From a virus: 24,379 nt of DNA. Below, one piece after another: positions 1 to 18,400 of this stretch. The position numbers were made by a program, and so were the translations under genes. The number at the start of each line of letters is the position of its first letter. The first letter of the stretch is position 1. The notes under the pieces are model-generated. The model searched no databases, was not told where the DNA came from, and worked only from the letters and a program-made list of their open reading frames with translations. The stretch is from positions 1 to 24,379 of the IMG/VR virus record IMGVR_UViG_3300030116_000462; one strand, 5' to 3'.

Positions 1-204
1 ATGATGGGTCAAGTACAAAAGAAGATAGCAATGGGCAGTACTAAGGCTCTAAACAACATTATATCATTGTCTGATGGTGCGAACTCTGAGTATGTAAGGT
101 TGGAAGCTAGCAAGGATATCTTAGATCGTGCTGGATTTAAGGCTCCAGATAAGCACCAACATCTCATAGATGGGAACTTTAGTATCAACATTGACCTAAG
201 TTAG
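1..204 (+). CDS. Terminase small subunit-like protein, C-terminal part
   Basis: The frame is open from the first base to a TAG at 202-204 and gives 67 residues. The window starts on ATG ATG, but no ribosome binding site can be seen, and small terminase subunits are usually longer than 100 residues, so this is probably the C-terminal part of a gene starting outside the window. The segment SEYVRLEASKDILDRAGFK (about residues 29-47) has the 'VRL.A...ILDRAG' pattern I associate with phage terminase small subunit or helix-turn-helix packaging proteins, followed by a short tail ending in DLS. Such proteins recognise the packaging site and hand DNA to the large subunit. The large subunit gene lies about 3 kb downstream, with unknown genes between. 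The family call rests on this one motif and on position, so it is moderate. Confidence 0.5.
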   Translation: MMGQVQKKIAMGSTKALNNIISLSDGANSEYVRLEASKDILDRAGFKAPDKHQHLIDGNFSINIDLS

Positions 205-376: not shown

Positions 377-469
377 ATGCCAATGGGAAAAGGAACATAT
401 GGATCTAAGAGAGGCAGACCGCCTATGAAAAAGACTTCTAAGAAGATGCCAATGAAGAAAAAGAAATGA
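377..469 (+). CDS. 30-residue basic protein with AT-hook motif
   Basis: The ORF encodes 30 residues: an N-terminal MPMGKGTYGS, then KRGRPP (residues 11-16), then a Lys/Met-rich tail ending in four lysines. KRGRPP contains the RGRP core of the AT-hook, a motif that lies in the minor groove of A+T-rich DNA. The start is supported by AGGAGA at 365-370, six bases upstream, and the stop overlaps the next ATG in an ATGA. It is the first full gene after the candidate promoter and lies between the small and large terminase genes. DNA binding is a reasonable inference from the motif and the charge; a role in packaging, condensing the genome or acting on host DNA is open. I recall similar very short basic ORFs in marine podoviruses but cannot name a family. 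Confidence 0.65.
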   Translation: MPMGKGTYGSKRGRPPMKKTSKKMPMKKKK

Positions 470-1167
470 GTTTATTACCTAAAAGAAGAATTAAAAACCC
501 AGCTACTCCAGAAGAAAAGGTTATTACCAGACGTAGCGCACAAGCTATTGGAGGAATAGTTAGCCTTTTAGCTGCTGGTGGAATGCAATTGCCTGGACGG
601 ATGTTCTTTTCTGGTATAGGAGGAAAAGCTATTAAACAAGCGTTTAAGAAAGCTGGTCAATCTGGCTTAAACCTCAAATCTGCTGACACAATAGGTAATA
701 GACTTAGAACAACACAGGGGATTTTGGGTACTAGCCGTACAGGTCAAAATCTAATGAGAGATGTCATTGGAGTAAACGTTCCTCTAAAGAGTGTATGGAA
801 AAACTCGACGAAACAATTACCAACGAAACTTAAAACAAGGCAAATGACAGCACAGAATTATCTTCTTTCAACAGCTGGTATGCCTATATCTCGCTCAAAA
901 AGAATAGCTCCAACATTTGATCAAAGAAAAACAGACAGAATCATTCAAAAAGCCGTTGCACAAGGACCAGCTAAATTCTTTAGTAAAGGTAGGCATCCTA
1001 AAACAGGCGTTACTGCTGGTAAAAGAAAAGCACAAAGGTTTCATCCAATGGATCAAGAAGATATGTTTGGTATGAGTAACAGTACTTCTTTATTTCATAA
1101 CAAAGACTTAATTAGAGAAACTTTGAAAGCTAATAGATTAGCCAGAAAAAAACTTAAAAAGAAATGA
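466..1167 (+). CDS. Basic protein of unknown function (233 aa)
   Basis: I do not recognise this protein. It starts in an ATGA overlap with the preceding AT-hook gene and has no separate strong ribosome binding site, so translation is probably coupled. The N-terminus is basic (residues 1-25) and is followed by a glycine-rich hydrophobic stretch (about 28-52, with GGIVSLLAAGG), too broken by glycine and charge to be a confident membrane helix. The rest is rich in Lys, Arg, Gln and Thr, has no cysteine cluster or known catalytic motif, and ends in a run of lysines. Size, charge and position between the terminase subunits would fit a DNA-associated virion protein or packaging factor, but this is inference only. 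The next gene starts in its stop codon. Confidence 0.75.
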   Translation: MSLLPKRRIKNPATPEEKVITRRSAQAIGGIVSLLAAGGMQLPGRMFFSGIGGKAIKQAFKKAGQSGLNLKSADTIGNRLRTTQGILGTSRTGQNLMRDVIGVNVPLKSVWKNSTKQLPTKLKTRQMTAQNYLLSTAGMPISRSKRIAPTFDQRKTDRIIQKAVAQGPAKFFSKGRHPKTGVTAGKRKAQRFHPMDQEDMFGMSNSTSLFHNKDLIRETLKANRLARKKLKKK

Positions 1168-1340
1168 GTATTGAAAAGAACATTCGTAAAGCCAAAAAAA
1201 TTGTTGCTCTAGAAGCTAAAGAAAAGAGATCCAATCGTAATCGCAGAGTCAAAGACTATATTGAAATGAAGATGCTTAGAGGTCATTCTAGAGAAGCTGC
1301 AACAGAAATGGCTAAAGGACTTATTGACCAACAGGGCTAA
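1164..1340 (+). CDS. Small helical protein of unknown function (58 aa)
   Basis: This 58-residue ORF begins in an ATGA overlap with the 233-residue gene and ends three bases before the 583-residue gene. It reads MSIEKNIRKAKKIVALEAKE at its start, continues with a highly basic segment (KRSNRNRRVK, residues 21-30) and ends with HSREAATEMAKGLIDQQG. The composition suggests two or three helices with no membrane segment. It fills what would otherwise be a 176-base hole in a tightly packed operon, and both ends fit the coupled stop/start pattern of its neighbours. These are my reasons for calling it real. I see no family resemblance that would give a function. Confidence 0.7.
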   Translation: MSIEKNIRKAKKIVALEAKEKRSNRNRRVKDYIEMKMLRGHSREAATEMAKGLIDQQG

Positions 1341-1343
1341 ATC

Positions 1344-3095
1344 ATGGCATTACCACTACTACCTCTATTATTATCTCAAGGAGCTAGATATGGCGCTACA
1401 CAGATTGGTAGAAAGGTATTAGGTCGTACTGGTCGCAAGATAGTCAAACAGACAGGCAATATAGCCTCAAAATACGGCAATAGAGCCGTAACAGGTGCAT
1501 TCTACGTTGATGCAGTAAACGAGGCTTCTAAGGGCAATTATGAGCCTCTCACAGATTTAGCACAATTTGGATTGATGGGTAGGTTAAATCGTGCTGGACC
1601 AATCTTAAAAGTAGATGATTATATATCTGCTGATCGTGGATTATTAAAAGATGTTTTTAGAACTGGCGGAAAAATACGTAATCAAACTTACGTTACTAAA
1701 AAGATTATTAAAGATGAGAAAGGTAGCTCCCCTGTATTTGATGCTGGTAAAAATCCTAATACCAAAAATTTTGCTAGAGAAAATACAGAAGAATTTTATT
1801 ATTCTACTAAAGGAAAAAAAATACCTCTCAGAATAGCTGCTAAAAAGGAGAAACAGTTAGTTAAAACAGGCAAATCAAAGATTGGTGCTAGAGTTAGATT
1901 TGTAGACAAAGAGGGCAATATTGCTACTTATTTACCAGCAGACTTAGTAAGAAAAGGATCGCACAAAAAAGATTCTGGTCCTGGAGCTTCTAAAATTAAA
2001 GGTTATGAATTGATTGATGGTCAAATAAAAACACCAACAGAACGAGCAAGACCTGTATATACTGACTTTAAAATGAATCGTGCTGAATCTACAAGAAGAA
2101 AAAAAGAAGAATTAACAGAGGGTTACAAAAAGTTAGAAGCAAAAAATTTTGAAACTCGATTAGATAAAGTAGATAGAACACAAGCTCACTTAGATTATGA
2201 AACTAAACAAATAAGAAATTTATTTGCTGAGAGAGTAAAACAAGTAGCGGCTAAAGGCGATAAAGTAAATAGATTATTTTATTCTAGCAAAGACCCAGGA
2301 TCAATTAAGGCGGCTAAAATATACTTAGAAGAAGCTGAAAAAATTGGTTTATATGTTAGACCTATGGTAAAACCATCAAAAGGCGCTGTAGATAAAGTAA
2401 AAATACAAGATGTTGTCAAAGATCAACAATATGGTTCAGCAGCAATGCAAAATACTAAGATTGATACCAAAACTGGAAAAATTACAATGGCTGAATCAAT
2501 AAAACAAACTGATATAGCAGACAGGACAGGTAAAAAACAAATGTTATATACCTTTATGTACGCTAAAAGAGGAGATACTAGTACAGGTAAAGCTTTTGTT
2601 TTGAAAACAGCTACAGGGGATAGACCTCGTGGAATCTTTAAAGAAACTGCATCTGTACAAAGAAATATTGATCAAATGCAAGAATTGAAAGAAAGAGCAG
2701 CTCGTAACATGGCTAGAGCCAATAGAGGTTATAAAGTAGCTCGTAAACCAGAAGTAGTAGAGAAAAAAATATATGCAGCACCACGTAGAGATGACACCAA
2801 TCTAAGAAAGATAGGTCAACCAAAAGTTAGAAAGTTTGGCAAAATGGATCACTATAGTGTTATTTTTGTAGATGGTAAACCTCAACTTGTTAATCCAGCA
2901 ACTATAAAAGGTCGCAGCCAAGGAGCAAGGAGTAAATATGGTAAAATGCCTTTAGCAGAACAAATAGAACAAAAAAATTTATTAAGAGATACTAAAATAC
3001 AAATTAAACCAGGAACTTTATTTGGTGGAGGCACAAAAGATCCATCAAGACAATTAGATTTATTTAAAGACAAACCTAAAAAACCTAAGAAATAA
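1344..3095 (+). CDS. Large basic protein of unknown function (583 aa)
   Basis: The second-largest gene upstream of the portal encodes a protein I do not recognise. It opens with a short hydrophobic segment, MALPLLPLLLSQGARYG, then a basic helical region (about residues 18-50) that includes GRKVLGRTGRKIVKQTG. The bulk is rich in lysine and arginine, with a likely coiled-coil helix near residues 245-300 (rich in Lys, Glu and Arg). The C-terminus has RQLDLFKD followed by KPKKPKK. No ATPase, nuclease, protease or glycosidase motif could be found by eye. Expression is probably coupled: the ATG lies three bases after the preceding stop and the next gene starts in TAATG at its end. Its charge and its place between the terminase genes would fit a virion or DNA-bound protein, perhaps an extra ejected protein, but this is unproven. 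Confidence 0.75.
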   Translation: MALPLLPLLLSQGARYGATQIGRKVLGRTGRKIVKQTGNIASKYGNRAVTGAFYVDAVNEASKGNYEPLTDLAQFGLMGRLNRAGPILKVDDYISADRGLLKDVFRTGGKIRNQTYVTKKIIKDEKGSSPVFDAGKNPNTKNFARENTEEFYYSTKGKKIPLRIAAKKEKQLVKTGKSKIGARVRFVDKEGNIATYLPADLVRKGSHKKDSGPGASKIKGYELIDGQIKTPTERARPVYTDFKMNRAESTRRKKEELTEGYKKLEAKNFETRLDKVDRTQAHLDYETKQIRNLFAERVKQVAAKGDKVNRLFYSSKDPGSIKAAKIYLEEAEKIGLYVRPMVKPSKGAVDKVKIQDVVKDQQYGSAAMQNTKIDTKTGKITMAESIKQTDIADRTGKKQMLYTFMYAKRGDTSTGKAFVLKTATGDRPRGIFKETASVQRNIDQMQELKERAARNMARANRGYKVARKPEVVEKKIYAAPRRDDTNLRKIGQPKVRKFGKMDHYSVIFVDGKPQLVNPATIKGRSQGARSKYGKMPLAEQIEQKNLLRDTKIQIKPGTLFGGGTKDPSRQLDLFKDKPKKPKK

Positions 3096-3301
3096 TGGCT
3101 CATTCTATAGAAAAACTTAGAAAGTATAACAAACCAGCTATGAAAAAACTTATAATGGCTGTCAAAATGAGTCATATGAAAGACTTACCAAAAGAAGCAA
3201 TTACTGATAGAGAGGCTGAAAGAGTATTAGAATCTTTAAATCCTTTGACTTTAGAGAAGCTTTACAAACTAGCAGTAGAACATGACATCGTTAACTTATA
3301 A
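3095..3301 (+). CDS. Small protein of unknown function upstream of terminase (68 aa)
   Basis: The ATG overlaps the preceding TAA by one base (TAATG) and the end overlaps the large terminase start by 20 bases, so the gene is tightly coupled on both sides. The 68 residues look all-helical: a basic first half (MAHSIEKLRKYNKPAMKKL, then a Met-rich stretch) and an acidic second half with DREAERVLESLNPLTLEKLY. There is no membrane helix, cysteine motif or recognised domain. A small helical protein directly ahead of TerL could be an accessory to packaging, but position is the only evidence for that. Confidence 0.7.
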   Translation: MAHSIEKLRKYNKPAMKKLIMAVKMSHMKDLPKEAITDREAERVLESLNPLTLEKLYKLAVEHDIVNL

Positions 3302-4787
3302 GCCAGACGGCGAAATATTAAAACAATTCATGAAAGATGAATCTTTCTTTAGAGGATTAAGAGGACCAGTAGGTAGTGGCAAATCAGTAAGCTGTTGTAT
3401 TGAAGTAATGCGCAGAGCATTAGAACAAAAAAAAGGTCCAGATGGTAAACGAAAATCTAGATGGGCTGTTATTCGTAATACTAACCCACAGCTTAAAACT
3501 ACTACTATTAAGACTTGGCTAGACTGGTTTGAAGAAGAACATTGGGGAAACTTTGCTTGGTCTGTGCCTTATACTCACATGATTAAAAAAGGAGATATTG
3601 AGCTTGAAGTTATCTTTTTAGCCTTAGATAGACCAGATGATGTAAAAAAACTATTGTCATTAGAATTGACAGGAGTGTGGATCAATGAAGCGAGAGAGAT
3701 ACCGAAGTCAATTGTGGATGCTTGTACTATGCGGGTTGGACGTTATCCTAGTATGCGCGATGGTGGTCCTAGCTGGTATGGTGTTATAGCTGATACAAAC
3801 CCTCCAGATACAGATCATTGGTGGTCAATACTGTCTGGAGAAGCATTAATACCTGATTATATTACTAAACAAGAAGCTAAAATGTTAGTTAAGCCAGATA
3901 CATGGAGATTTTTTAACCAACCTCCAGCAATGTTAGAAATTATGGATAAAGAGGGAAAGCTTGATTCATATGGAGATAACAAAGATAAAGAAAATGGTAA
4001 AAACTTAACCAAAAATTATTATGAAAGTATTATACGAGGCAAGACTAAATCATGGATAGATGTTTATGTATTAAATAAACTAGGACAAATTGAAGATGGT
4101 AAACCGGTTTATGAAATGTTTAGGAGAGATATTCATGTTGCTAAATCAGATGTAGCTATTATGAAAGAAACTCCTATCTATGTAGGAATTGACTTTGGAT
4201 TAACACCAGCTTGTGTATTTGGACAGAGAGTTAGAGGCAGATGGCTTATTATTGATGAATTAGTAGCTGAAGATATGGGTATATTACGCTTTAGTGACCT
4301 TATTAAACAAAAAATGGCAGAATATTTACCTAGAAATTTTGTTATATTTGGCGATCCAGCTGGCGATCATAGAGCGCAAACAGATGAATCTACACCATTT
4401 CAAATACTTAGAGGTCGTGGAATTAATGCCAGACCAACACATTCTAACGATGTTACATTGCGATTAGAGAGTGTTAATGCTACATTGCAGAGAATGATAG
4501 ATGGAGAATCTGGAATATTGATAGATCCTAAATGTATAAATCTAATTAAAGGATTTGATGGTGGATATCATTATCGTAGACTTCAAGTATCAGGGGAAAG
4601 ATATGATGAAAAACCTAACAAAAATAGGTTTTCCCATATACATGATGCTTTGCAGTATATGTTATTGGGTGCTGGGGAGGGTAGATCATTGACCATTGGT
4701 CAAAAAACTGCTACACCTAGAGTAGCAAAAAGAGATTTTAACGTTTTTGATATGAAATCTAAAAGCGTTTATGAAAGGAGAAGATAA
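3282..4787 (+). CDS. terL: Terminase large subunit (TerL)
   Basis: This is the DNA-packaging motor: an ATPase that pumps DNA into the prohead through the portal and a nuclease that cuts the concatemer. The N-terminal ATPase has Walker A GPVGSGKS (residues 28-35), the adenine-side segment RNTNPQLKTTT (65-75), Walker B hydrophobics ending in NEA (LTGVWINEA, 129-137; catalytic Glu136) and a coupling motif ADTNPP (170-175). The C-terminal RNase H-like nuclease has acidic residues in GIDFG (Asp304), FGDPAGD (Asp358) and HIHDALQY (Asp455). At 501 residues it is full length. The start at 3282 is the first in-frame Met and leaves a normal lead before Walker A; the next Met (residue 17) would be tight. 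It is preceded by unknown genes and followed by the portal block, unlike T7, where the terminase genes follow the tail fibre. Confidence 0.95.
   Translation: MTSLTYKPDGEILKQFMKDESFFRGLRGPVGSGKSVSCCIEVMRRALEQKKGPDGKRKSRWAVIRNTNPQLKTTTIKTWLDWFEEEHWGNFAWSVPYTHMIKKGDIELEVIFLALDRPDDVKKLLSLELTGVWINEAREIPKSIVDACTMRVGRYPSMRDGGPSWYGVIADTNPPDTDHWWSILSGEALIPDYITKQEAKMLVKPDTWRFFNQPPAMLEIMDKEGKLDSYGDNKDKENGKNLTKNYYESIIRGKTKSWIDVYVLNKLGQIEDGKPVYEMFRRDIHVAKSDVAIMKETPIYVGIDFGLTPACVFGQRVRGRWLIIDELVAEDMGILRFSDLIKQKMAEYLPRNFVIFGDPAGDHRAQTDESTPFQILRGRGINARPTHSNDVTLRLESVNATLQRMIDGESGILIDPKCINLIKGFDGGYHYRRLQVSGERYDEKPNKNRFSHIHDALQYMLLGAGEGRSLTIGQKTATPRVAKRDFNVFDMKSKSVYERRR
4775..4780 (+). promoter_or_regulatory. 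Ribosome binding site that fixes the start at 4789
   Basis: AAGGAG lies eight bases before ATG 4789. An in-frame ATG at 4771 lies inside the terminase gene just ahead of this site and has no comparable site upstream, so 4789 is the more likely start of the proline-rich gene. Confidence 0.65.
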
Positions 4788-4788
4788 C

Positions 4789-5055
4789 ATGTGTAGTTTC
4801 GGAGGAGGACCAAAGGCACCACCGCCACCACCACCACCAGATCCTCGTATTGAAGAGCAAGCAAAAGAGAAGCGAAGAAGAGAAAGATTACAGCTTCAAA
4901 GAGAAACTGCTGCTCTAAAACAAGAACAATACGAACAAAGAGTTGCTGCTACATACGGTACTCGTGGCAGACGTTCTTTATTGTCTGGTAGTAGAGGAGG
5001 TAGAGGCTTTGCACTTGAACCATCATTAATGAGTAAGAAAACACTAGGTGCATAA
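4789..5055 (+). CDS. Proline-rich small protein between terminase and portal (88 aa)
   Basis: Starting at 4789, the protein begins MCSFGGGPKA, continues with seven consecutive prolines and then DPRIEEQ. It goes on as a charged helix (about residues 22-58, rich in Arg, Glu and Gln) and ends in a Gly/Arg/Ser-rich segment with RGRRSLLSGSRGGRGF. Small proteins with this layout (Cys/Gly start, polyproline, helix, Gly/Arg-rich end) occur beside portal genes in podoviruses as far as I recall, but no function is known to me. The start is one base after the terminase stop, and the portal ATG overlaps its stop (TAATG). The polyproline run predicts ribosome pausing and dependence on elongation factor P. 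A minor virion or head-tail joining role is a guess from location. Confidence 0.7.
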   Translation: MCSFGGGPKAPPPPPPPDPRIEEQAKEKRRRERLQLQRETAALKQEQYEQRVAATYGTRGRRSLLSGSRGGRGFALEPSLMSKKTLGA

Positions 5056-6931: not shown

Positions 6932-7712
6932 AGAACAAGCACCAGCTACTGAAGAAGTAGCACAAGAACAACCAACAGAAGAAGAGGTTTCACGTGAAAC
7001 ATCCGAGGTAATGGAAAGACCAGAAATTATACCAGAAAAATTTTGGAATAATGAGACTGGAGAAATTAATCTAGAAGATATGGCTAAATCCTATGCTCAT
7101 TTAGAAAGATTTGCTAGTGGCAAAAAAGATGAAATGAGAGAAGCAGTTATGTCTGAAATAGAAGCAGAAGCTAGAGAGAGTCTACCAGAATCAGCAGAAG
7201 CATATACTTTACCTAAATTAGTAGAGGGTGTAACCGAAGAAATGGTAGAAAATAATCCTCTTACTGGCTGGTGGCGTAACAAATGTCATGAAATGGGATT
7301 AGACCAAGAGTTATTTGAAGATGGTATTAATCAATATGTAGATTTTATGCAATCTTCTGTACCTGATATTGATGCAGAAATGGAAAAATTAGGAGAAAAT
7401 GCAAATGATAGATTAAATGCTGTTAATTCATGGGCGCAATCTTTTTTTCCACCAGAAGAGTTTGAAACCATAGTTAGCACTTTAGGTACATCAGCTCAAG
7501 GCATTGCTGTATTAGAAAGAATACAAGATTCTATGAAATCTAGCATGGGAAGATCAGAGTCTGTTGCACAACCAGAAAGAGAGTTGAGTATTGCTGATGT
7601 TAAGCAAATGATGAATGATAAACGTTATTATGACTCAAGACATAGAGATGCAGACTATGTAAGAAAAGTAGATGAGGCATGGGCTAGGCTCAATACGGCT
7701 GGCAAAGTTTAA
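6924..7712 (+). CDS. Scaffolding (capsid assembly) protein, T7 gp9-like
   Basis: This protein fills the prohead, guides capsid subunits around the portal and leaves before DNA packaging. The 262 residues have the usual layout: an acidic, disordered N-terminus (1-35, rich in Glu, Ala and Gln), the marker segment KFWNNETGEINLEDMAKSYA (39-58), a helical acidic middle, and a basic C-terminal helix-loop-helix with RYYDSRHRDADYVRKVDEAW (234-253), the region that binds capsid protein in this family. AGGAG at 6912-6916 is seven bases before the ATG. It starts inside the end of the Bbp19-like gene, and its TAA overlaps the ATG of the next gene. It lies close to the portal and capsid genes, as in T7 and relatives. 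Confidence 0.88.
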   Translation: MAEEQAPATEEVAQEQPTEEEVSRETSEVMERPEIIPEKFWNNETGEINLEDMAKSYAHLERFASGKKDEMREAVMSEIEAEARESLPESAEAYTLPKLVEGVTEEMVENNPLTGWWRNKCHEMGLDQELFEDGINQYVDFMQSSVPDIDAEMEKLGENANDRLNAVNSWAQSFFPPEEFETIVSTLGTSAQGIAVLERIQDSMKSSMGRSESVAQPERELSIADVKQMMNDKRYYDSRHRDADYVRKVDEAWARLNTAGKV

Positions 7713-8239
7713 TGCTTTATGTAGAAAAAGGGACACCAGCTCATGCATTTGAGTTGGCGTTCAAACTACGAGATTTAGACAAATACGAAATAGCAATATC
7801 TGGTCACGATCCATTAACTGCATTAATAAATCCTTTTAGATTCGAAAGACCTAATGTAAATACTTATACTGTGTTAGATAATGGCAGTGTTGTTGCTATG
7901 TTTGGCGTTGTATCTAATAAAAATAATACAAAATATGGATCAGTTTGGATGTTATCTTCAGAAGAATTAGATAAAAATTGGTATTATTTTTCTAAAAGAA
8001 CTAAAAAATGGTGTGATTATTTCTTATCAGATTACGAATATGTATACAATTGCATAACAAAAGAGCATAAAAACAACATAAAATGGCTAAAATGGCTAGG
8101 TTTTAGCTTTAAAAATGAGAATATTATTGTCAAAGATGTAGAATTATTGTATTTTTATAAGAAGATACCTAGTGTATCTAAAAATATACAGCCCATTTTA
8201 GGGGATATCGGTCCGGTTTGGACAACCGAGATAAGCTAA
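7712..8239 (+). CDS. T7 gp13-like protein with acetyltransferase-type fold
   Basis: The 175 residues resemble the phage T7 gp13 family (formerly DUF2833), whose members look like GNAT acetyltransferases. Visible marks are a beta-hairpin-like VLDNGSVVAMFGVV (54-67), a central strand GSVWMLSSEEL (76-86) and a helix plus C-terminal NNIKWLKWLGFSF (121-133), equivalent to the 'N..aI.wLk.lGF' end of GNAT folds. In T7, gp13 is needed for assembly of the internal core; no enzymatic role is established. I see no clear acetyl-CoA binding loop (Q/RxxGxG/A), so catalysis is doubtful. The ATG overlaps the scaffold stop (TAATG). Its place between scaffold and capsid is unlike T7, where gene 13 follows the nozzle gene. 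Confidence 0.7.
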   Translation: MLYVEKGTPAHAFELAFKLRDLDKYEIAISGHDPLTALINPFRFERPNVNTYTVLDNGSVVAMFGVVSNKNNTKYGSVWMLSSEELDKNWYYFSKRTKKWCDYFLSDYEYVYNCITKEHKNNIKWLKWLGFSFKNENIIVKDVELLYFYKKIPSVSKNIQPILGDIGPVWTTEIS

Positions 8240-9121: not shown

Positions 9122-9370
9122 ATGGCTTTAGATGCAACTAACTTAAAAAAAATTGCCGGTGCTGGAGATCAAAACTTATTCGTTTATCACAGTACTGACG
9201 CTGTAGGTACAATTGCTGGTTCTGGTTATTTTAATAACTCGACAGATGATCTTAAGCAATTTGATATAATTATAGCTGTAGGTGCCACTGGTGGTACTGC
9301 AACTGTAGATGTATTAATTGTTTCATCTGCAACAGGAGCTGCAACTGTAACTTGCACTAACGGAACATAA
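9122..9370 (+). CDS. Probable head decoration or minor head protein (82 aa)
   Basis: This small gene lies 11 bases after the capsid stop and has one of the strongest ribosome binding sites in the window (AAGGAGGG around 9109-9116). The 82 residues are beta-rich: NLFVYHSTDAVGTIAGSGYF (19-38), LKQFDIIIAVGATGGTATVD (44-63), then a strand-rich, Ala/Thr-rich end. Small proteins with this 'STDA....SGYF....L..FDvI.V' pattern are frequent right after capsid genes in phages, often annotated as decoration or head-fibre proteins. The pattern and position support the call; direct function is not established. It shares a high-expression module with the capsid gene and is followed by a hairpin at 9378-9408. 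Confidence 0.65.
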   Translation: MALDATNLKKIAGAGDQNLFVYHSTDAVGTIAGSGYFNNSTDDLKQFDIIIAVGATGGTATVDVLIVSSATGAATVTCTNGT

Positions 9371-9377
9371 TGTTTCA

Positions 9378-9408
9378 GGGGGAGGGTTTCCTTGTTTATC
9401 TCTCCCCC
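9378..9408 (+). terminator. Hairpin after the capsid module, possible terminator
   Basis: GGGGGAG (9378-9384) and CTCCCCC (9402-9408) form a perfect, all but one G:C, 7-bp stem (plus a G-U pair inside) with a 15 to 17-base loop. It fills the 47-base gap between the decoration gene and the tail tube gene, the same place where T7 has its late terminator after gene 10. No long U run follows (ACTTAAATTATG), so it may be a partial terminator, a processing site or a 3' end stabiliser. The stem stands out in this A+T-rich genome. Confidence 0.5.
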
Positions 9409-10029: not shown

Positions 10030-12510
10030 ATGGGAATAGCAAGAATATCACAAACCAATTTCAATAGAGGAGAAATTGACCCAAATTTAATAGGAAGAGT
10101 AAGTTTAGAAACTTATGGATCAGCTTTAAAAAAAGCAAGAAACGTAATAGTTAATAACCAAGGACCAGTAGAAAGGAGACCAGGAACCTATTTTAGAGCA
10201 GATTTAGGAGCAGAGAGTAGGTTAGAATCCTTTATATTTTCAGGAGATCAAGAGTATATTTTTGCTTTCCAAAACACTGTTCTAAAAATATACTCTACTG
10301 CTGGATCATTATTACAAACTATAACTTCATGTCCTTGGACAACTAGCAATATATTTGAATTAAATTATACCCAACAAGGCGATACTATGATTGTTGCACA
10401 TGAAGATTTTATGCCATCAATTATAAAAAGAACTGGAGCTACTACGTTTGCTAATTCAACTTTTGCATTCGATACTAGTATAAACGGAGAAAAAGTCTAT
10501 CAGCCATATTTTAAATTTGCTGACGATACAATTACATTAGATATTGATTCTGTTACTAAAGATGCAACAGGTGTTACTTGTACTGCCTCATCTGGTTATT
10601 TTACAAGTAGTTATGTAGGAACAAGAATTAGATATATGGGAGCTGAACTTCTAATAACAGGATATACTAGCGCAACTGTAGTTACAGCAACCTTAAAAGC
10701 TGTTCCAGAAATAATATTGGATGAAGATCCATTTGCTACTGCTGCTGGCACAGGCACAGTAACAGTAACTCACGTAGCTCATGGATTCTCTACTGGTGCT
10801 TCTGTTACTTTTGCTGGTTCAGAAGATATTAATGACACAGATGGTGCTGGTTTGGCTTCTGGAAATATAAATGGAGCAAGAACAATTACAGTAGTAGATG
10901 ATGATCACTATCAATTTACAGCTGGATCTGGAGATACAGCTACAGAATCTGTAGATGGTGGTGGAGTTAGAGTTACTGTTGTAGGGCATCCACCAACAAG
11001 GAATTGGGATGAACAAGTATTTTCAGATATAAATGGTTATCCAAAAGCAGTAGCATTTCATGAACAACGTTTATTTTTTGGTGGTGTAGCTAATTTACCA
11101 GATGGTATACAAAGTAGTAAAACAGGTACATTTTTTAATTTTGATGTTGGTAAAGCTGAAGATGCAGATTCAGTACAAATACAAATAGCTTCAGATGAAA
11201 TAAACGATATTAGACATTTGAGGTCTGGCAAAGTATTAGAAATATTAACAAATACATCAGAGTTTTATTTAAAACCACAAGTATCTAAACCTATTACACC
11301 AGCAGATATACAGATTATTAGACAATCCTCTAATGGATCACAACAAAAAGCAATGCCTAGATTTTTTGATGGTGCTACTACATATGTTCAAAATAATGGG
11401 AAAACAGTAAGAGAGTATGTATTTAATTCTGCTTTAGAAGAATTTAGTGATGCACCTATAAGTATTGAGGCTAATCACTTAATAGACTCTCCGAAAGATA
11501 GCGCATCTATAACAGCATTGCCAAAAAGAACAGAACAGCTTTATTTTTTAATAAATGATGATGGTACTATCGCAGTATATTCATCACAGAGGGCGCAAAA
11601 AGTATTAGGATGGGTACAATGGAATACATCTGGAACTTTCGAATCTGTTTGTACTACATCCAATAATGTGTATTTTTCAGTAAAAAGGACTATAAATAGC
11701 GCAACAGTTTATTATTTAGAACAGTTATCTTCTACGGTATATGATGTACCAACAGATATGACTTGTACTAAAACATTGTCAGCGAGCTACCAACCCCACG
11801 GTTCGCCCCTCACAAACGGAACTACTAGTAGCTCGACTGGCTTTATAGCAGATGGATTTACCAATGCTCCTCAAGTAGGAGAAAAATTTAAGTTTGCTGG
11901 AACAGGCACAGAATACACTATAAATGCTGCAACTGCTACAGGAGTTTCTGGCGAATATAATATTACGATTAATGCTGCTGTTAGCACTACTAATAATGTT
12001 GAGCTTAGATTTACCTTTTCTAAGACTTGGTCTGGCTTGAATTCTACTCCTGATATGCGAGGATTAACAGTATATGGAACTTCTGGTACTACAGAGGGAG
12101 GTAACATTAACTATTATGGAGATGGTGTTGTTACTAGCGGCGGTGTTGTCGTATTGGATAGTGTCGCATCTGCAATAGATATTGGCACAAATTATACGCT
12201 AGAAATTGATACTCTAGCTGTAGACGCTGTCGTTCCAGCATCTGGAGGTAAAGCACCATTAACTGGATATCCAAGAAAAATTGCTAAAGCAATAGTAGAA
12301 ATATCTAATAGCTATAACCTTAAAGTTAATACTAATGATGTAATTATAACAACAGTATCTGATCTTAATAACGCAGATACTATTGCTAGTTTTACTGGCA
12401 AAAAAGAAGTACATTTCTTAGGATATGATTTAGAACCATCTATGCAAATAACACAGTCAGTACCTCTACCTCTTAGAGTATTGGCTATAACATCGGAGAT
12501 TTATTACTAA
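10030..12510 (+). CDS. Tail nozzle protein (tail tube protein B, T7 gp12-like)
   Basis: This forms the hexameric nozzle of the short tail. It is 826 residues long (T7 gp12 is 794). The N-terminus has the family marker: ISQTNFNRGEIDPNLIGRV (6-24), ALKKARNVIVNNQGPVERRP (32-51). Further marks are NGYPKAVAFHEQRLFFGG (about 335-352) and the C-terminal LPLRVLAITSEI. Two segments look inserted: residues about 240-318 (TVTVTHVAHGFSTGASVTF and following Gly/Asp-rich repeat-like text) and about 590-660, which starts at a G+C-rich patch. The ATG follows the gp11-like stop directly. The gp14-like gene starts in its stop codon (TAATG). Confidence 0.9.
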   Translation: MGIARISQTNFNRGEIDPNLIGRVSLETYGSALKKARNVIVNNQGPVERRPGTYFRADLGAESRLESFIFSGDQEYIFAFQNTVLKIYSTAGSLLQTITSCPWTTSNIFELNYTQQGDTMIVAHEDFMPSIIKRTGATTFANSTFAFDTSINGEKVYQPYFKFADDTITLDIDSVTKDATGVTCTASSGYFTSSYVGTRIRYMGAELLITGYTSATVVTATLKAVPEIILDEDPFATAAGTGTVTVTHVAHGFSTGASVTFAGSEDINDTDGAGLASGNINGARTITVVDDDHYQFTAGSGDTATESVDGGGVRVTVVGHPPTRNWDEQVFSDINGYPKAVAFHEQRLFFGGVANLPDGIQSSKTGTFFNFDVGKAEDADSVQIQIASDEINDIRHLRSGKVLEILTNTSEFYLKPQVSKPITPADIQIIRQSSNGSQQKAMPRFFDGATTYVQNNGKTVREYVFNSALEEFSDAPISIEANHLIDSPKDSASITALPKRTEQLYFLINDDGTIAVYSSQRAQKVLGWVQWNTSGTFESVCTTSNNVYFSVKRTINSATVYYLEQLSSTVYDVPTDMTCTKTLSASYQPHGSPLTNGTTSSSTGFIADGFTNAPQVGEKFKFAGTGTEYTINAATATGVSGEYNITINAAVSTTNNVELRFTFSKTWSGLNSTPDMRGLTVYGTSGTTEGGNINYYGDGVVTSGGVVVLDSVASAIDIGTNYTLEIDTLAVDAVVPASGGKAPLTGYPRKIAKAIVEISNSYNLKVNTNDVIITTVSDLNNADTIASFTGKKEVHFLGYDLEPSMQITQSVPLPLRVLAITSEIYY
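11783..11835 (+). repeat. 8-bp inverted repeat around a G+C-rich patch in the nozzle gene
   Basis: CGAGCTAC (11783-11790) and GTAGCTCG (11828-11835) are perfect reverse complements with 37 bases between. The 60 bases 11781-11840 contain 35 G or C (58%), against 17 of 60 in a sample line at 13381-13440. A smaller pair, AACC (11792-11795) and GGTT (11800-11803), lies in the loop. The DNA is coding throughout, and the translated stretch (SASYQPHGSPLTNGTTSS) begins what looks like an inserted module. Confidence 0.6.
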
Positions 12511-13199
12511 TGTGTGATCCAATAACAATGGGAGTAGTAGCTGGAGCTGGAGCTGGAACAGCTGCATATGCTGGCGTTCTTGGAACAGCAGCAACTGGAA
12601 GTTTAATGACTGCTGCATCAATTGGTTTGACTGTTGGTAGCGGTGTTATGCAAGTAGGCGCAGCTTATCAAGCAAACAAAGCAGATCGTATATCAGCTGG
12701 TCTACAAGAAAGACAATATGATGAACAAGTTAAAAGATATAAGGCGCAAGCAGAAGCACAAGAATTAGAAACTATGCAACAAATTACTGCTAGGAAAAGA
12801 GATTATTTGAGAACACTATCATCAAATCGAGCCTGGATGGGTGCAAGCGGAGCTACAATGGACTCTGCAAGTTTTAATGCTTTATTACAAGATAACATGA
12901 GTACTTATAGAGATGATGTTTCAGCAATAGGATTAATGGGTACTGAAAAAAGATTTGAGACTATGAGTCTTGCACAAGATGCATTAGTCGCTAAATCTGG
13001 TGTTAGACCATTACTTAAAGCAAAACAATCAGCTAGAAATTTAGAAACATTATCTTCTGTTGGTAGTCAATTAGCAGAAGTAGGTACAGATTTTGGTGGT
13101 AAAAAATCAAAAGGTAGGAACATATTAAAAGAAACTGCTAGTCCTAAAGCATACGACAAATTAAGAAAAAGTTTATTAGGTAAAGAATATGGCTATTAA
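12510..13199 (+). CDS. Internal virion protein B (T7 gp14-like)
   Basis: In T7-type phages gp14 is part of the internal core and is ejected first, forming a channel in the outer membrane. The 229 residues begin MCDPITMG, the usual start for this family, followed by a long Gly/Ala hydrophobic stretch (residues 7-53). Then comes a charged helix (55-102, with QERQYDEQVKRYKAQAEAQE), then SNRAWMGASGATMDSASF (105-122), the conserved 'A..GASG....S.S' segment. T7 gp14 is about 196 residues, so this one is slightly long, with a basic C-terminal extension. The ATG overlaps the nozzle stop by one base, and the gp15-like gene starts 11 bases before its end. Confidence 0.82.
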   Translation: MCDPITMGVVAGAGAGTAAYAGVLGTAATGSLMTAASIGLTVGSGVMQVGAAYQANKADRISAGLQERQYDEQVKRYKAQAEAQELETMQQITARKRDYLRTLSSNRAWMGASGATMDSASFNALLQDNMSTYRDDVSAIGLMGTEKRFETMSLAQDALVAKSGVRPLLKAKQSARNLETLSSVGSQLAEVGTDFGGKKSKGRNILKETASPKAYDKLRKSLLGKEYGY

Positions 13200-15453
13200 G
13201 AGAGAAAAGAGACAAGTAGAATATAGTACTAAAATTGGAGTAAATAGAGGTTCTGGTATTGCTTCAGCAGCACAAGCAAAAGCACAAGAATCACAAATAT
13301 TTGATCGTATACTTACACAACAAGCAGATGAAAATTTAAAAAGATTACAAGAGAGAGGAGAGCGTTTAGGTTTAGACAGAGCAACTAAAACTAAGTTTTC
13401 TACTATTTCTAAAGATGTAGATATTGATGGAACTATTCAGACAGTTAATGTTCCTATTATGCCAGAAACACCTACAGGCATGGGTCTAACAGAAGCAAAA
13501 ACATATCAAAAAAATATAGTAGATTTGTTTAATGCCAGAATGAAAACAGATATTGATAGTCAAATATTACAGGCTAGTAGAGAAGCTGTAATGAATAATG
13601 CAACACCAGATATATTCGATAGAGATTTAGATGTAAGATTAAAACCTTTTTTTGATGCTATGCCAGATGGTTCTTATAGACAATTAATGAGAACTTATGC
13701 ACAAGAAAGAAAAGATGTTCATAGTTATAAAGTTTTTGATAATGATAGAAGAAATCAAACTGCACAAGCTAAATTTAATTATGATAACCAACTAGCAAAT
13801 GCAAACGTTGCGATTGGATTTGTTTACAAAGACAGAAAAATTACAGCAGCAGATTATGAAAATGTAGATTACGAATCTTTAGAAAATGCTGGTATAGATA
13901 CAACTACTTTAAAACTAGCACAAAAAAATGAAATTGAATCTTTTAACATAGCTGGAGATTTTTTTAGAAAACACAATATTATATCTGATCCTAATTCAGT
14001 AAATGATTTTAATAGATTAATACAAGGCAAAGTAGATGAAATTACAGTAAATGGAGAAACAATAACACGTGATAAATTATCTCCATATTTAAGTAATGCA
14101 CGTTCATTTCAAATAATAAGTGAAGAATTAAAAAATTTAGATATTTACAATAACGAACAATATGTTGATCGAGCTATAAGACAAAAATACGAAAATGATT
14201 TTAGTAAAGGTATAGATGGAATATATAATGGAAATCGCATTTCTTCTTCTATTGCTGCTAATCCAACAGATTTTGATAAATTTTATAACAAACATAAACT
14301 TATGTATGATAGACAACTAGAAGAATCATTGGCTAGAAATGGTATAAAAATAAATGAACTTACTAAATTTAGGGCTATGTTAAATGCACATTCTTATATT
14401 CCAGAAAATGTAAGAACAGAAATTGAATCAATCATTAGAAATCCTAGTACAACTGGCATTACCACTATGATGCCTTTTTTAGAAACTTTAAATACTTATG
14501 GCATTGAAAACAAAGAATATGCAATGCCAGGCATGAATCGTAAACAAAAAAGACAATTAGGTTTGTTGATCAGTTTATACAATAAAAATGGAAGAGATGC
14601 AGAAAAAACAAGTATTGAATATCAAAGTTTAAAAGATAAATTTGATACACAAGGAGATATAACTCAAATAATACAGAGTAATATACAAACTGGTTCTACA
14701 TATATAACTGAGAGGAGACATTTAATAGAACAAATTAATGGGCATATGCAAAAAGAAGATGGGGTTTTGAAAGATTTACGTGTATTTTCTATAGATAGAG
14801 GATTTCAAGAAGAAGTAGTAAGAGAAGTAGAATTATTATTAATGACAGGAAGAGTAATAACTGATGATGATGATTATGTAAATATGATTAGTGAGGCAGT
14901 AAATAATGTATTATCTTACGATACTATTTATTCTATTGATGATACAACAAGTCCACTTATAACATCTGATGAAATATTAATGCTTAAAACAACTCCTGGT
15001 ATGCAAAGAACAAGAATAACTAAATATGGTGCAAAAAAATACTATGGAATTGTAGATACAAATTTTAATACCAAAAGCGAAGATGGCTCTAATAAAATAA
15101 ATTATATACACGATAGTATTTTAATGGAGTTAGAAGATGCAGATCCATCTCAATTTGTTGGAGAAGAAAGCGGAAAAAGACAATTTATAAATAAAATGAA
15201 AAAGTTAAAAGGCACTAATGAATTTTTTTATGAAGATGAAAGAGAAACTATGCACATACAATTAACACCAATAGGTGCAGTTTATTCAGAACAAAACCCA
15301 CCAGATTATTTTATTAGCATATACAATCCACAGAATGATTCATATGAACCAATAGTTTCAGAGAGCGGCACAAGATTAATAATAACATCAGAAGAGTTTA
15401 ACGAAGAAAGAGATGAATATATAGAATTTTTAAAAAAAGGTAGATATGAGTAA
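13189..15453 (+). CDS. Internal virion protein C (T7 gp15-like)
   Basis: gp15 forms the middle of the internal core and, after ejection, the periplasmic part of the DNA-conducting tube. The 754 residues match T7 gp15 in length (747) and in kind: almost wholly helical, charged, with few cysteines and no signal peptide or enzymatic motif. The N-terminus (KREKRQVEYSTKIGVNRGSG) resembles the 'r..v.....p......g' start of the family, and a Gln/Ala segment with SAAQAKAQESQIFDRI follows. The call relies mainly on size, order (gp14-gp15-gp16) and the N-terminus. It overlaps both neighbours by a few bases (11 upstream, 8 downstream). Confidence 0.8.
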   Translation: MAIKREKRQVEYSTKIGVNRGSGIASAAQAKAQESQIFDRILTQQADENLKRLQERGERLGLDRATKTKFSTISKDVDIDGTIQTVNVPIMPETPTGMGLTEAKTYQKNIVDLFNARMKTDIDSQILQASREAVMNNATPDIFDRDLDVRLKPFFDAMPDGSYRQLMRTYAQERKDVHSYKVFDNDRRNQTAQAKFNYDNQLANANVAIGFVYKDRKITAADYENVDYESLENAGIDTTTLKLAQKNEIESFNIAGDFFRKHNIISDPNSVNDFNRLIQGKVDEITVNGETITRDKLSPYLSNARSFQIISEELKNLDIYNNEQYVDRAIRQKYENDFSKGIDGIYNGNRISSSIAANPTDFDKFYNKHKLMYDRQLEESLARNGIKINELTKFRAMLNAHSYIPENVRTEIESIIRNPSTTGITTMMPFLETLNTYGIENKEYAMPGMNRKQKRQLGLLISLYNKNGRDAEKTSIEYQSLKDKFDTQGDITQIIQSNIQTGSTYITERRHLIEQINGHMQKEDGVLKDLRVFSIDRGFQEEVVREVELLLMTGRVITDDDDYVNMISEAVNNVLSYDTIYSIDDTTSPLITSDEILMLKTTPGMQRTRITKYGAKKYYGIVDTNFNTKSEDGSNKINYIHDSILMELEDADPSQFVGEESGKRQFINKMKKLKGTNEFFYEDERETMHIQLTPIGAVYSEQNPPDYFISIYNPQNDSYEPIVSESGTRLIITSEEFNEERDEYIEFLKKGRYE

Positions 15454-18400
15454 AAAAATTGGAGATAAAACTAGTTTTCTAGAAGATACTTTTAGAGCAT
15501 ATTTAACTCAAACACCAGAGTTTTTTCAAAGAGAATCAGAGTTTGAAGAGGGCGCTTTAACTCTTAATCCATATTCTGATTTAGATGAATTAAGAAGCGG
15601 CAGAATGCATTTAGATATTAATTATCTAGAACCAGATCCAGAATTTAATTGGGTACAACAATTAGAAGAAGATGGATATGATATGTTCAGAAATCATTTA
15701 GCTGATCATAACATAACAAACAAAAGACAATATGATGTTGCGATAAATACAATAAAAAAAATACAATCTAATGCAAGACAATTCAATCAATCAGATAGAT
15801 TTTGGGGTCCAATGATTGCCTCACAGTTTATGCAATTAGAAACTTATGCTCTCTTGCCATTTACATTCGGTGCTGGTGTAGGTATTGGTGCAGCAGTTAA
15901 AGGTGGATTTAAGGCGGCTGCTGTTAATATGGCTACTGAAATACCTAGAGAAACCACTAGGATATATTACGATCCTTATTACAATGAAACACATAGCTTA
16001 TTTAATTTTGGTTTAGCTGGTGCATTTGGTGGTGTTTTAGGTGCATTGCCTCCTTTAGCTAGAGGTGGTATGAAGTCATGGCGTAATAGAGGCATTGGTC
16101 AAAAAACTAAATATGACAATATGAGTCATGAAAATGTTGTAAAAGAAAGTTTTGAACAATGGTATACAAAATATGGTAATGATTTAGATATAGATTTTAG
16201 TTTGAAACTTCCAGGTTTAAGTAGAAGTGCTGTAAGAAAAAATGCAGAAAATGGTACTAATAAATATATTGATCTTAAAACAGGTAAAGCATTTGTTAGA
16301 GACAAAAAACAAAGAAGAGCAATAAGTAAAAAAGATTTGTATATACCTGTCAAATTAAAACAAGACGATGTTGGATTGCAAACTTTAGAAATAGATAAAT
16401 CATACATGGAGTATAATTATCAACTTTTTAAACGTGGCAAAACCATTCCCAATATACCAGGTACATTTAATAAATTTATTAAAACGAGAAGTGATTTTGA
16501 AAACTTTATAATACGTAAAGAAGTGTATAGAGATTTAGATTATGTCCAAGATTTACCTGTTAATATAAAAAATAAAGAGTTAGCTTTAAATACTAAAGTT
16601 ATGCAAGATTTGATAGATGAAAACAAAATGAGTTTTCAAACTAGAGAAATGGTACCACCTATTAATATAGGAACAGATCATTTTAAAATAGATATTACCG
16701 CAGTAAACACAATAAACAGAATGATGGAAAAATTATCTCCATTAACAAAATACAATAATAAATTTAAAAACGATTCTAAATTATATTTTAAAGCTAATCA
16801 TTTAATAAGTAGTCTAATTAATGATAATGGTATAAAACTACAAGCGAGCAATAAAGGTTTTTCTATTAATGATAGTGTTTATACTACTAAAGATACAATA
16901 TTTGGAAAACATCAATTAAAATTTGAAACTGAATTAAATGATTTGTATTTAAACTATCTTGGAAGATATAAAGAATACAATGATTTAAACAAAGGATTAC
17001 AATCTTCTTATAACTCATTAAAAGTTTCTGCCGAAAGAATGACAGAAAAAACTAAACAATTTACAGAAGATAAAATAAATAAACTACTCAATAAAAAAAC
17101 AGAAAAGTTATCTACAGACGAGCCATTTACTACACATATGACTAGACCAGAATTTAACAAAGAAATTACAAGATTATTAGCAAACCCAGATTTGTTAGAA
17201 AATACAAAAATACCAGAGTTAAGAGAAGCTGTTATAGCAACTAGAAGATTTTATGATATGCCAGCAAAAATTATAGAAAGAGAAGAAATGATGGGTTATG
17301 CCCCAAAAGCAAAACAATTTAGAGAAATACAAACAAGAATAAAAAGAATTACTGCTAAATTAGAAAAAGCAAAAGAGGGAACAGGACAGCATGAAACGTA
17401 TAAAAAGTTATTAGAACAATACGAAAAAAGACAAGAATATTTATCTGATGTAATTGAAGAATTAAATGATGGTACTTTAAAACTAAAAAAAATACCTAAA
17501 AATGATGTCAAATATTCAGGCATAATGCCAGCAAATGAAAGCAAAGAAACATTCTTTCATAGAATACATATTAGAGAAGCATATGTAAATTATCCTAAAC
17601 AAGCTAAAGCTAGAATACTTGATGATTTATTAAATTATCATCCTGATAAAGAAACGTATAGAAAGTTAATGGCTGGAGATAAAAAATCAAAAGCAGAAGT
17701 ATTCAATAAAGTTAATGAAAAATATTTAAGAATAGTTAGCAGAGATCATATGGATGAATTAAATCTAATGGAACATTACAAAGATAAAAAAGTAAATCCA
17801 ACAATACATAGAGGTTTATATGGTCCAAACAAAAACTTTTTAGAAGATGCTAATGAGGGTATTAAGTTTATAGAAGATGATGTTGTAGAAATATCTAGAC
17901 AATACACACAACAAATAGGTACAGCAATACAAATGAATCGTATATTTGGAGACAAAATGGGATTCTTTAAAAAACTAGAATTAGTAGAAGATATTGCAGA
18001 TCGTGTACCTTTAGAAAATGTTAAGCCTAATATAGAAAATGCATTTCCATTTGTAAGAGATATTAAAAAATCTGTTACAGGCAAAATGTCGTTAGATGAA
18101 ATAAATGCAATAGTAAGAAACTTTGAAGATCAAGTTTATAATTTATACGGTTTACATAATAGAATTGCTCCTAATAATTTTAGCAAAAGATTAATAGAAA
18201 ATTTAATGAATTATACAATAACTACTACTATGGGAAATGCTGGTTTGTCTGGTATGGCTGAAATGGCAAGAAGAGTTACAGTACATGGCATAAAAAAAGC
18301 TGGTTTGTTTCCAGGTAAAAAGTTTTTATCTGGCACTTACGGTAAATCATATAAAGCCTTAAATGATGCTATGAGAGAACAATTAGATAAACAAGCATCA

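What the first reader, a model, noticed from the sequence alone, without database searches (positions are those of the whole stretch)
377..3301. Uncharacterised block of five basic or small proteins between the two terminase genes
Seen: five coupled ORFs (30, 233, 58, 583 and 68 residues) without a recognisable domain, most of them strongly Lys/Arg-rich, lie between the TerS-like end and TerL. Known: in T7-type phages this interval is not occupied by such genes. Inference: they may be a DNA-binding set made together with the packaging motor, for example condensing or extra ejected proteins, or takeover proteins carried in the virion. The 583-residue protein alone is bigger than the portal or terminase. 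This is the best candidate in the window for an undescribed system.
Basis: partly seen in the sequence, partly recalled or inferred. Interest (0 to 1): 0.7.

Follow-up and report, generated by a model that had tools for sequence, protein, structure and literature searches.

The report
Swappable basic cargo genes between terminases
Between its two DNA-packaging genes, this marine phage carries two slots that relatives fill with different, strongly positively charged and quickly evolving proteins, some with enzyme domains that act on ADP-ribose; they are probably carried in the virus particle and injected to disarm or take over the host cell.

Summary
The five ORFs exist exactly as described, and p233 and p583 match no family or described phage. 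Comparison with 73 TerL-related and further p58-related virus contigs shows a two-slot cassette locus: TerS–(p30)–[slot A]–p58–[slot B]–p68–TerL. p58 and p68 are conserved. Slot contents are replaced exactly at the start/stop junctions, even between phages with 98–99% identical TerL. All but one of 80 distinct cargo proteins are strongly basic (net charge >+0.08 per residue), against 0 of 153 downstream proteins. Cargo combines exchangeable hydrophobic N-terminal modules with unrelated C-terminal domains. In relatives these include NADAR (solid), an ADP-ribosyltransferase-like fold (moderate), SLOG (weak) and, once, glucosaminidase. The canonical T7-type internal virion proteins lie elsewhere in the window. 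Best reading: cargo made with the head, bound to DNA, packaged and injected; functionally like T4 internal proteins/Alt and the "polyvalent" effectors. Virion presence is inferred, not shown, and p583 and p233 have no assigned activity. New variant of a known, mostly predicted, kind.

The parts
1..204 (+). C-terminal part of TerS (67 of about 118 aa), left border of the locus
   Evidence: phrog_2538 terminase small subunit 4.7e-11; full-length 118-aa versions in L075, L005
377..469 (+). p30: 30-aa lysine-rich peptide with AT-hook-like core (KRGRPP); semi-conserved, moves between loci
   Evidence: homologues beside TerS, or after portal in L012-L018, or as N-terminus of slot-A cargo in L060
458..471 (+). 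left copy of 14-nt direct repeat AAAAAGAAATGAGT at the slot-A border
   Evidence: W471 joins W1156 in L005, which lacks slot-A cargo
466..1167 (+). p233: slot-A cargo, basic, N-terminal module MSLLPKRRIKNPATPEE.. followed by a hydrophobic stretch
   Evidence: replaced or absent in relatives
1156..1169 (+). right copy of the 14-nt direct repeat
1164..1340 (+). p58: conserved small basic frame gene between slots A and B
   Evidence: 46-100% identity across TerL-related loci; more distant loci; not found in BcepC6B, MEP301 or VA-RY-3
1344..3095 (+). p583: slot-B cargo, basic, N-terminal module MALPLLPLLL.., fold unknown
   Evidence: AlphaFold pLDDT 41; replaced at W1357-3072 in L004
3095..3301 (+). 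p68: conserved frame gene, overlaps TerL start, not basic
   Evidence: 43-100% identity; extra cargo genes are inserted just before it in L003 and L005
3282..4787 (+). TerL, right border
   Evidence: phrog_2 2.7e-23; 81% to Pelagibacter phage EXVC031P Hodr

Best explanation
The interval is a two-slot cassette locus for exchangeable effector ('cargo') proteins in a pelagiphage-like podovirus. p58 and p68 are conserved frame genes; p233 and p583 are the current occupants of slots A and B. The cargo is translated with the terminase and head genes (gene order and overlapping starts: shown). Its high positive charge would let it bind packaged DNA or the head interior, and its exchangeable hydrophobic N-terminal modules would act as packaging/ejection signals (inferred). 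It would leave with the DNA at infection and act at once in the host, countering defence or modifying host factors through variable C-terminal domains, which in relatives include NADAR (removes ADP-ribose from guanine in characterised members) and ART-like domains (domains shown, action inferred). Cassettes are gained, lost and swapped at the coupled stop/start junctions, which carry short direct repeats (shown).
For: Conserved frame with variable contents: in 52 of 61 loci holding TerS and p68 the order is TerS-p58-p68, and all 61 hold at least one basic cargo gene. Clean exchange: against L004 (TerL 99% identical) DNA identity stops at W466, resumes at 1156, stops at 1357 and resumes at 3072; L005 lacks slot-A cargo and joins W471 to W1156, both inside copies of AAAAAGAAATGAGT. 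Charge: 79 of 80 distinct cargo proteins above +0.08 per residue, 0 of 153 downstream proteins. Module swaps: C-termini of L050 and L060_4239 are 71% identical with different N-termini, likewise L034/L044 (68%) and L013_957/L039 (53%); the N-terminal module of L060_4239 is 82% identical to that of L013_957. The most hydrophobic 19-mer lies in the first 80 residues of 61 of 70 cargo proteins. Domains: NADAR in L004/L065 (Pfam 2.4e-4, phrog_1017 3.5e-11, tblastn 9e-14 to a DUF1768 protein), absent from the otherwise 85-93% identical L008; ART-like cargo in L003, whose TerL is 100% identical to the window's by tblastn (Pfam ART-PolyVal in 4 members, best 0.0022; all 50 listed structural matches are ART-superfamily chains, though Z is at most 4.0). 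T7-type internal virion proteins gp13-, gp14- and gp16-like lie at 7712-8239, 12510-13199 and 15446-19666, so the block is additional. Literature: ART/NADAR proteins encoded beside terminase and portal genes are argued to be head-packaged (PMC9503650); T4 Alt is packaged and injected (PMC5512222); injected T4 Ip2/Ip3 block type IV restriction enzymes (PMC12373910).
Against: No virion proteomics was found for any member, so packaging is inferred. p583 and p233 have no recognisable domain; p583 gave no usable fold (pLDDT 41) and p233 was not folded. The ART assignment rests on sub-threshold profile scores (16-19 bits against a cut-off of 31.2) and a fold match with Z 4 or less; the glutamate of the REF(F/Y)G segment in L003 is alanine in L024. 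The N-terminal modules are not one family. Some cargo, such as the very small proteins of Hodr-like phages, may only condense DNA.
Confidence: 0.55

Rival explanations
1. The cargo proteins are internal structural proteins that condense or neutralise the DNA in the head, or help packaging; sequence does not matter as long as they are basic, which would explain drift and replacement.
For: Uniform strong positive charge with otherwise unrelated sequences; position between TerS and TerL; Hodr-like phages carry only very basic small proteins there (+27 of 102 and +38 of 132 residues); low predicted order for p583.
Against: NADAR, ART-like and glucosaminidase domains in the same slots need no role in condensation; 450-735-residue proteins with dN/dS 0.2-0.44 are more than charge filler.
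Confidence: 0.2
2. The cargo are accessory anti-defence or superinfection genes made in the infected cell and never packaged; the interval is simply a tolerant insertion site between late genes.
For: Hypervariable accessory genes often sit in such sites; phage NADARs occur both as early genes and in late clusters (PMC9503650).
Against: Late expression (inferred from position) is too late for counter-defence in the same cell; uniform basic charge and shared hydrophobic N-terminal modules are not expected of random accessory genes.
Confidence: 0.17
3. The block belongs to lysis: in T7 the gene 18 to gene 19 interval holds the Rz/Rz1 spanin genes (recalled, not tested here), and the slots would hold lysis functions.
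For: Same relative position as T7 18.5/18.7; slot B of L121 encodes a glucosaminidase domain (Pfam 2.3e-9, above cut-off); N-terminal hydrophobic stretches.
Against: No lysis family matched p233 or p583; NADAR and ART-like domains have no lysis role; the glucosaminidase case is one contig and is the one non-basic cargo protein.
Confidence: 0.06

Closest known systems
Phage polyvalent / head-packaged NAD-ADPr effectors (Iyer et al. 2017 PMC5512222; 2022 PMC9503650), including T4 Alt
   Same: Encoded with late packaging genes; relatives carry NADAR, ART-like and SLOG-like domains; domain insertion and swapping; predicted packaging and injection.
   Different: Here a fixed two-slot cassette between TerS and TerL in a small podovirus; proteins are short to medium and uniformly basic with exchangeable N-terminal modules; no MuF or portal fusion and no MPTase domain detected.
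T4 internal proteins IPI-IPIII
   Same: Basic, variable, often small proteins; injected with DNA against host defence in T4 (PMC12373910).
   Different: No sequence similarity reported by the profile libraries; no capsid targeting sequence or maturation protease identified; neighbours are terminase genes.
Hypervariable region of HTVC010P-type pelagiphages (Skadi, PMC10504331)
   Same: Arms-race island in a pelagiphage podovirus.
   Different: That island covers virion-core and tail-fibre genes; this one is between TerS and TerL in another lineage.
T7-type internal virion (ejection) proteins gp13-gp16
   Same: Late genes for proteins delivered with DNA.
   Different: The window has its own gp13-, gp14- and gp16-like genes elsewhere; the block is extra.

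Membership tests
Polyvalent phage effectors | encoded next to virion morphogenesis/packaging genes | tested here: met
   Between TerS and TerL, overlapping reading frames
Polyvalent phage effectors | two or more disparate known domains in one polypeptide | tested here: inconclusive
   No known domain in p583/p233; relatives show one recognisable domain on a common chassis (NADAR in L004/L065, SLOG-like in L076)
Polyvalent phage effectors | present in the virion and injected | not testable with these tools
   needs virion proteomics
ART-PolyVal (PF18760), for cargo of L003/L024/L034/L063 | score above the curated cut-off 31.2 bits | tested here: not met
   15.7-19.2 bits
ART superfamily, for cargo of L003 and relatives | ART fold with NAD-binding YRG motif | tested here: inconclusive
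   YRG invariant in A5; all 50 listed VIA rows are ART-superfamily chains but Z is at most 4.0, and Foldseek E is at least 0.41
NADAR (PF08719), for slot-B cargo of L004/L065 | significant similarity to annotated NADAR/DUF1768 proteins | tested here: met
   tblastn 9e-14, 37% to a DUF1768 protein; Pfam E 2.4e-4 but below its cut-off (21.9 against 35.1 bits)
T4 internal proteins | basic, hypervariable proteins of the head | tested here: inconclusive
   basic and hypervariable: met; head location not testable
T4 internal proteins | N-terminal capsid targeting sequence cleaved by the prohead protease | not tested
   no T4 capsid targeting sequence was compared; modules here are longer and differ among cargo
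T7-type ejection proteins | homology to gp13-gp16 | tested here: not met
   p233/p583 have no hit; such genes are present elsewhere in the window

The most novel reading that the evidence does not exclude
A general virion-delivery platform: two fixed slots between the terminase genes accept any basic effector carrying one of a few exchangeable N-terminal delivery modules, so this marine phage lineage changes its injected counter-defence proteins by cassette exchange at short repeats, with p58 and p68 as conserved landing or loading partners.
Probability: 0.3. Interest if true: 0.85.

Novelty: new variant of a known kind. Interest (0 to 1): 0.6.

Why it matters
If the cargo is injected, the locus is a readable record of what marine (SAR11-like) hosts use against phages: each swap names a candidate anti-defence protein. 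It would give head-packaged effectors a simple genetic address (between TerS and TerL, flanked by p58 and p68) and a charge and N-terminal signature that can be searched for in uncultured phages, and would show that small podophages, not only myophages, deliver ADP-ribose-handling enzymes.

Tried and rejected
Pfam and PHROGs on the five proteins: nothing. tblastn of p583, p233 and the ART-like cargo against phage records: no match. AlphaFold of p583 with 13 heterogeneous sequences: pLDDT 41, not used for fold searches. The idea that the p583 central region (about residues 280-345, beta-alpha-beta) is a SLOG domain: not supported by Pfam. A profile search of the ART-like group against PDB sequences: nothing. 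A regular-expression motif for the hydrophobic N-terminus fitted only 9 of 70 and was dropped. PADLOC on the cargo: nothing. p58 in sequenced prokaryote genomes: none. Ordinary chance-ORF artefact: rejected by dN/dS and conserved junctions. Promoter and terminator scans were at chance level.

Full report
Observation. The window is a 24,379-base virus record of a podovirus whose TerL is 81% identical to that of Pelagibacter phage EXVC031P Hodr. p30, p233, p58 and p583 are basic; p68 is not. None has a significant family match. p583 is under purifying selection but evolves about ten times faster relative to dS than TerL (dN/dS 0.34-0.44 against 0.03-0.06).

What it is. Searching IMG/VR with TerL gave 73 loci and with a p58 profile 80 (partly the same contigs). 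Gene maps show one frame: TerS–[slot A]–p58–[slot B]–p68–TerL. Of 61 loci with TerS and p68, 52 have this order, two have TerS moved behind p58, and in seven no p58 was called; all 61 hold at least one strongly basic cargo gene; the TerS–p68 distance is up to 3.6 kb. p58 and p68 are recognisable down to Hodr but were not found in the examined parts of BcepC6B, MEP301 or Vibrio phage VA-RY-3.

The slots exchange their contents. Against L004 (TerL 99%) homology ends at the p30/p233 junction, returns at p58, ends 13 nt into p583 and returns at its stop codon; in L005 slot A has no cargo and an extra 235-aa gene stands before p68; L003 (TerL 100%) has an extra 166-aa gene there. The slot-A borders carry the same 14-mer AAAAAGAAATGAGT, the coupled AAA-rich stop/start, and the joined sequence in L005 is this repeat.

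Nature of the cargo. 79 of 80 distinct cargo proteins of 100 aa or more exceed +0.08 net charge per residue; none of 153 downstream proteins does. The non-redundancy filter was crude, so the p-value printed there should not be taken literally. Cargo proteins share a few N-terminal modules that are recombined with unrelated C-termini in both directions; the most hydrophobic stretch lies in the first 80 residues in 61 of 70. In L060 the p30 sequence is the N-terminus of a p233-like protein. Domains in relatives: NADAR in the p583-type proteins of L004 and L065, absent from L008 while both flanks stay 85-93% identical; ART-like in a group including the extra gene of L003; SLOG-like in L076 (6.9e-4); glucosaminidase in L121; DUF6321, DUF5872 and DUF5754 small basic proteins.

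Mechanism. The T7-type internal virion proteins are present elsewhere in the window, so the block is not the standard ejection set. Position with the late packaging genes, basic charge, hydrophobic modular N-termini, rapid exchange and ADP-ribose-related domains together favour virion-carried effectors. This follows the published argument that ART and NADAR proteins encoded near terminase and portal genes are head-packaged (PMC9503650) and the experimental cases of T4 Alt (PMC5512222) and injected Ip2/Ip3 (PMC12373910). Phage and bacterial NADARs remove ADP-ribose from guanosine in DNA (PMC11125620), so NADAR cargo could protect incoming DNA from DarT-like toxins. Shown: the frame, the exchange, the charge, the modules and the NADAR domain. 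Inferred: packaging, DNA binding, injection and function. Unknown: what p583 and p233 do.

Limits. Gene calls were made by a simple script; cargo counts include related contigs. p583 could not be folded, and the ART fold match is weak in score although uniform in kind. No virion proteomics was found for this lineage.

Noticed in passing
window 377-469; L012-L018 about 9351-9401; L060 1487-1543: The p30 AT-hook-like peptide (GTYGSK[RKV]GRPP) is mobile: beside TerS here, after portal in a sister group, and fused to the N-terminus of slot-A cargo in L060.
   Followed up: partly
L023 3559-4303, L031 5255-6017: TerS has moved behind p58 and sits directly before p68; variable basic genes then lie upstream of p58.
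   Followed up: no
L121 1623-2681: Slot B holds a non-basic 352-aa protein with a glucosaminidase domain (Pfam 2.3e-9).
   Followed up: partly
L028, L036, L001 slot A/B small genes: Small basic proteins matching DUF6321, DUF5872 and DUF5754, the latter two also named in papers on algal or protist viruses, recur in the slots of one sub-lineage.
   Followed up: no
window 20224-20421: 30-bp tandem repeats (about 10 residues each, NVTTVAGISS) inside the tail-fibre-like gene 19663-21501.
   Followed up: no
window 4771-5055: 94-aa protein with a run of seven prolines and a basic C-terminus between TerL and portal, conserved in relatives.
   Followed up: no
L075 2807-4526: The p583 gene is split by a frameshift in a contig otherwise 99-100% identical to the window.
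   Followed up: no
L120, L129, L137, L144 between portal and p95: A 232-aa gene whose sequence in L144 looks like a metallophosphoesterase (by eye) is present in distant relatives and absent from the window.
   Followed up: no
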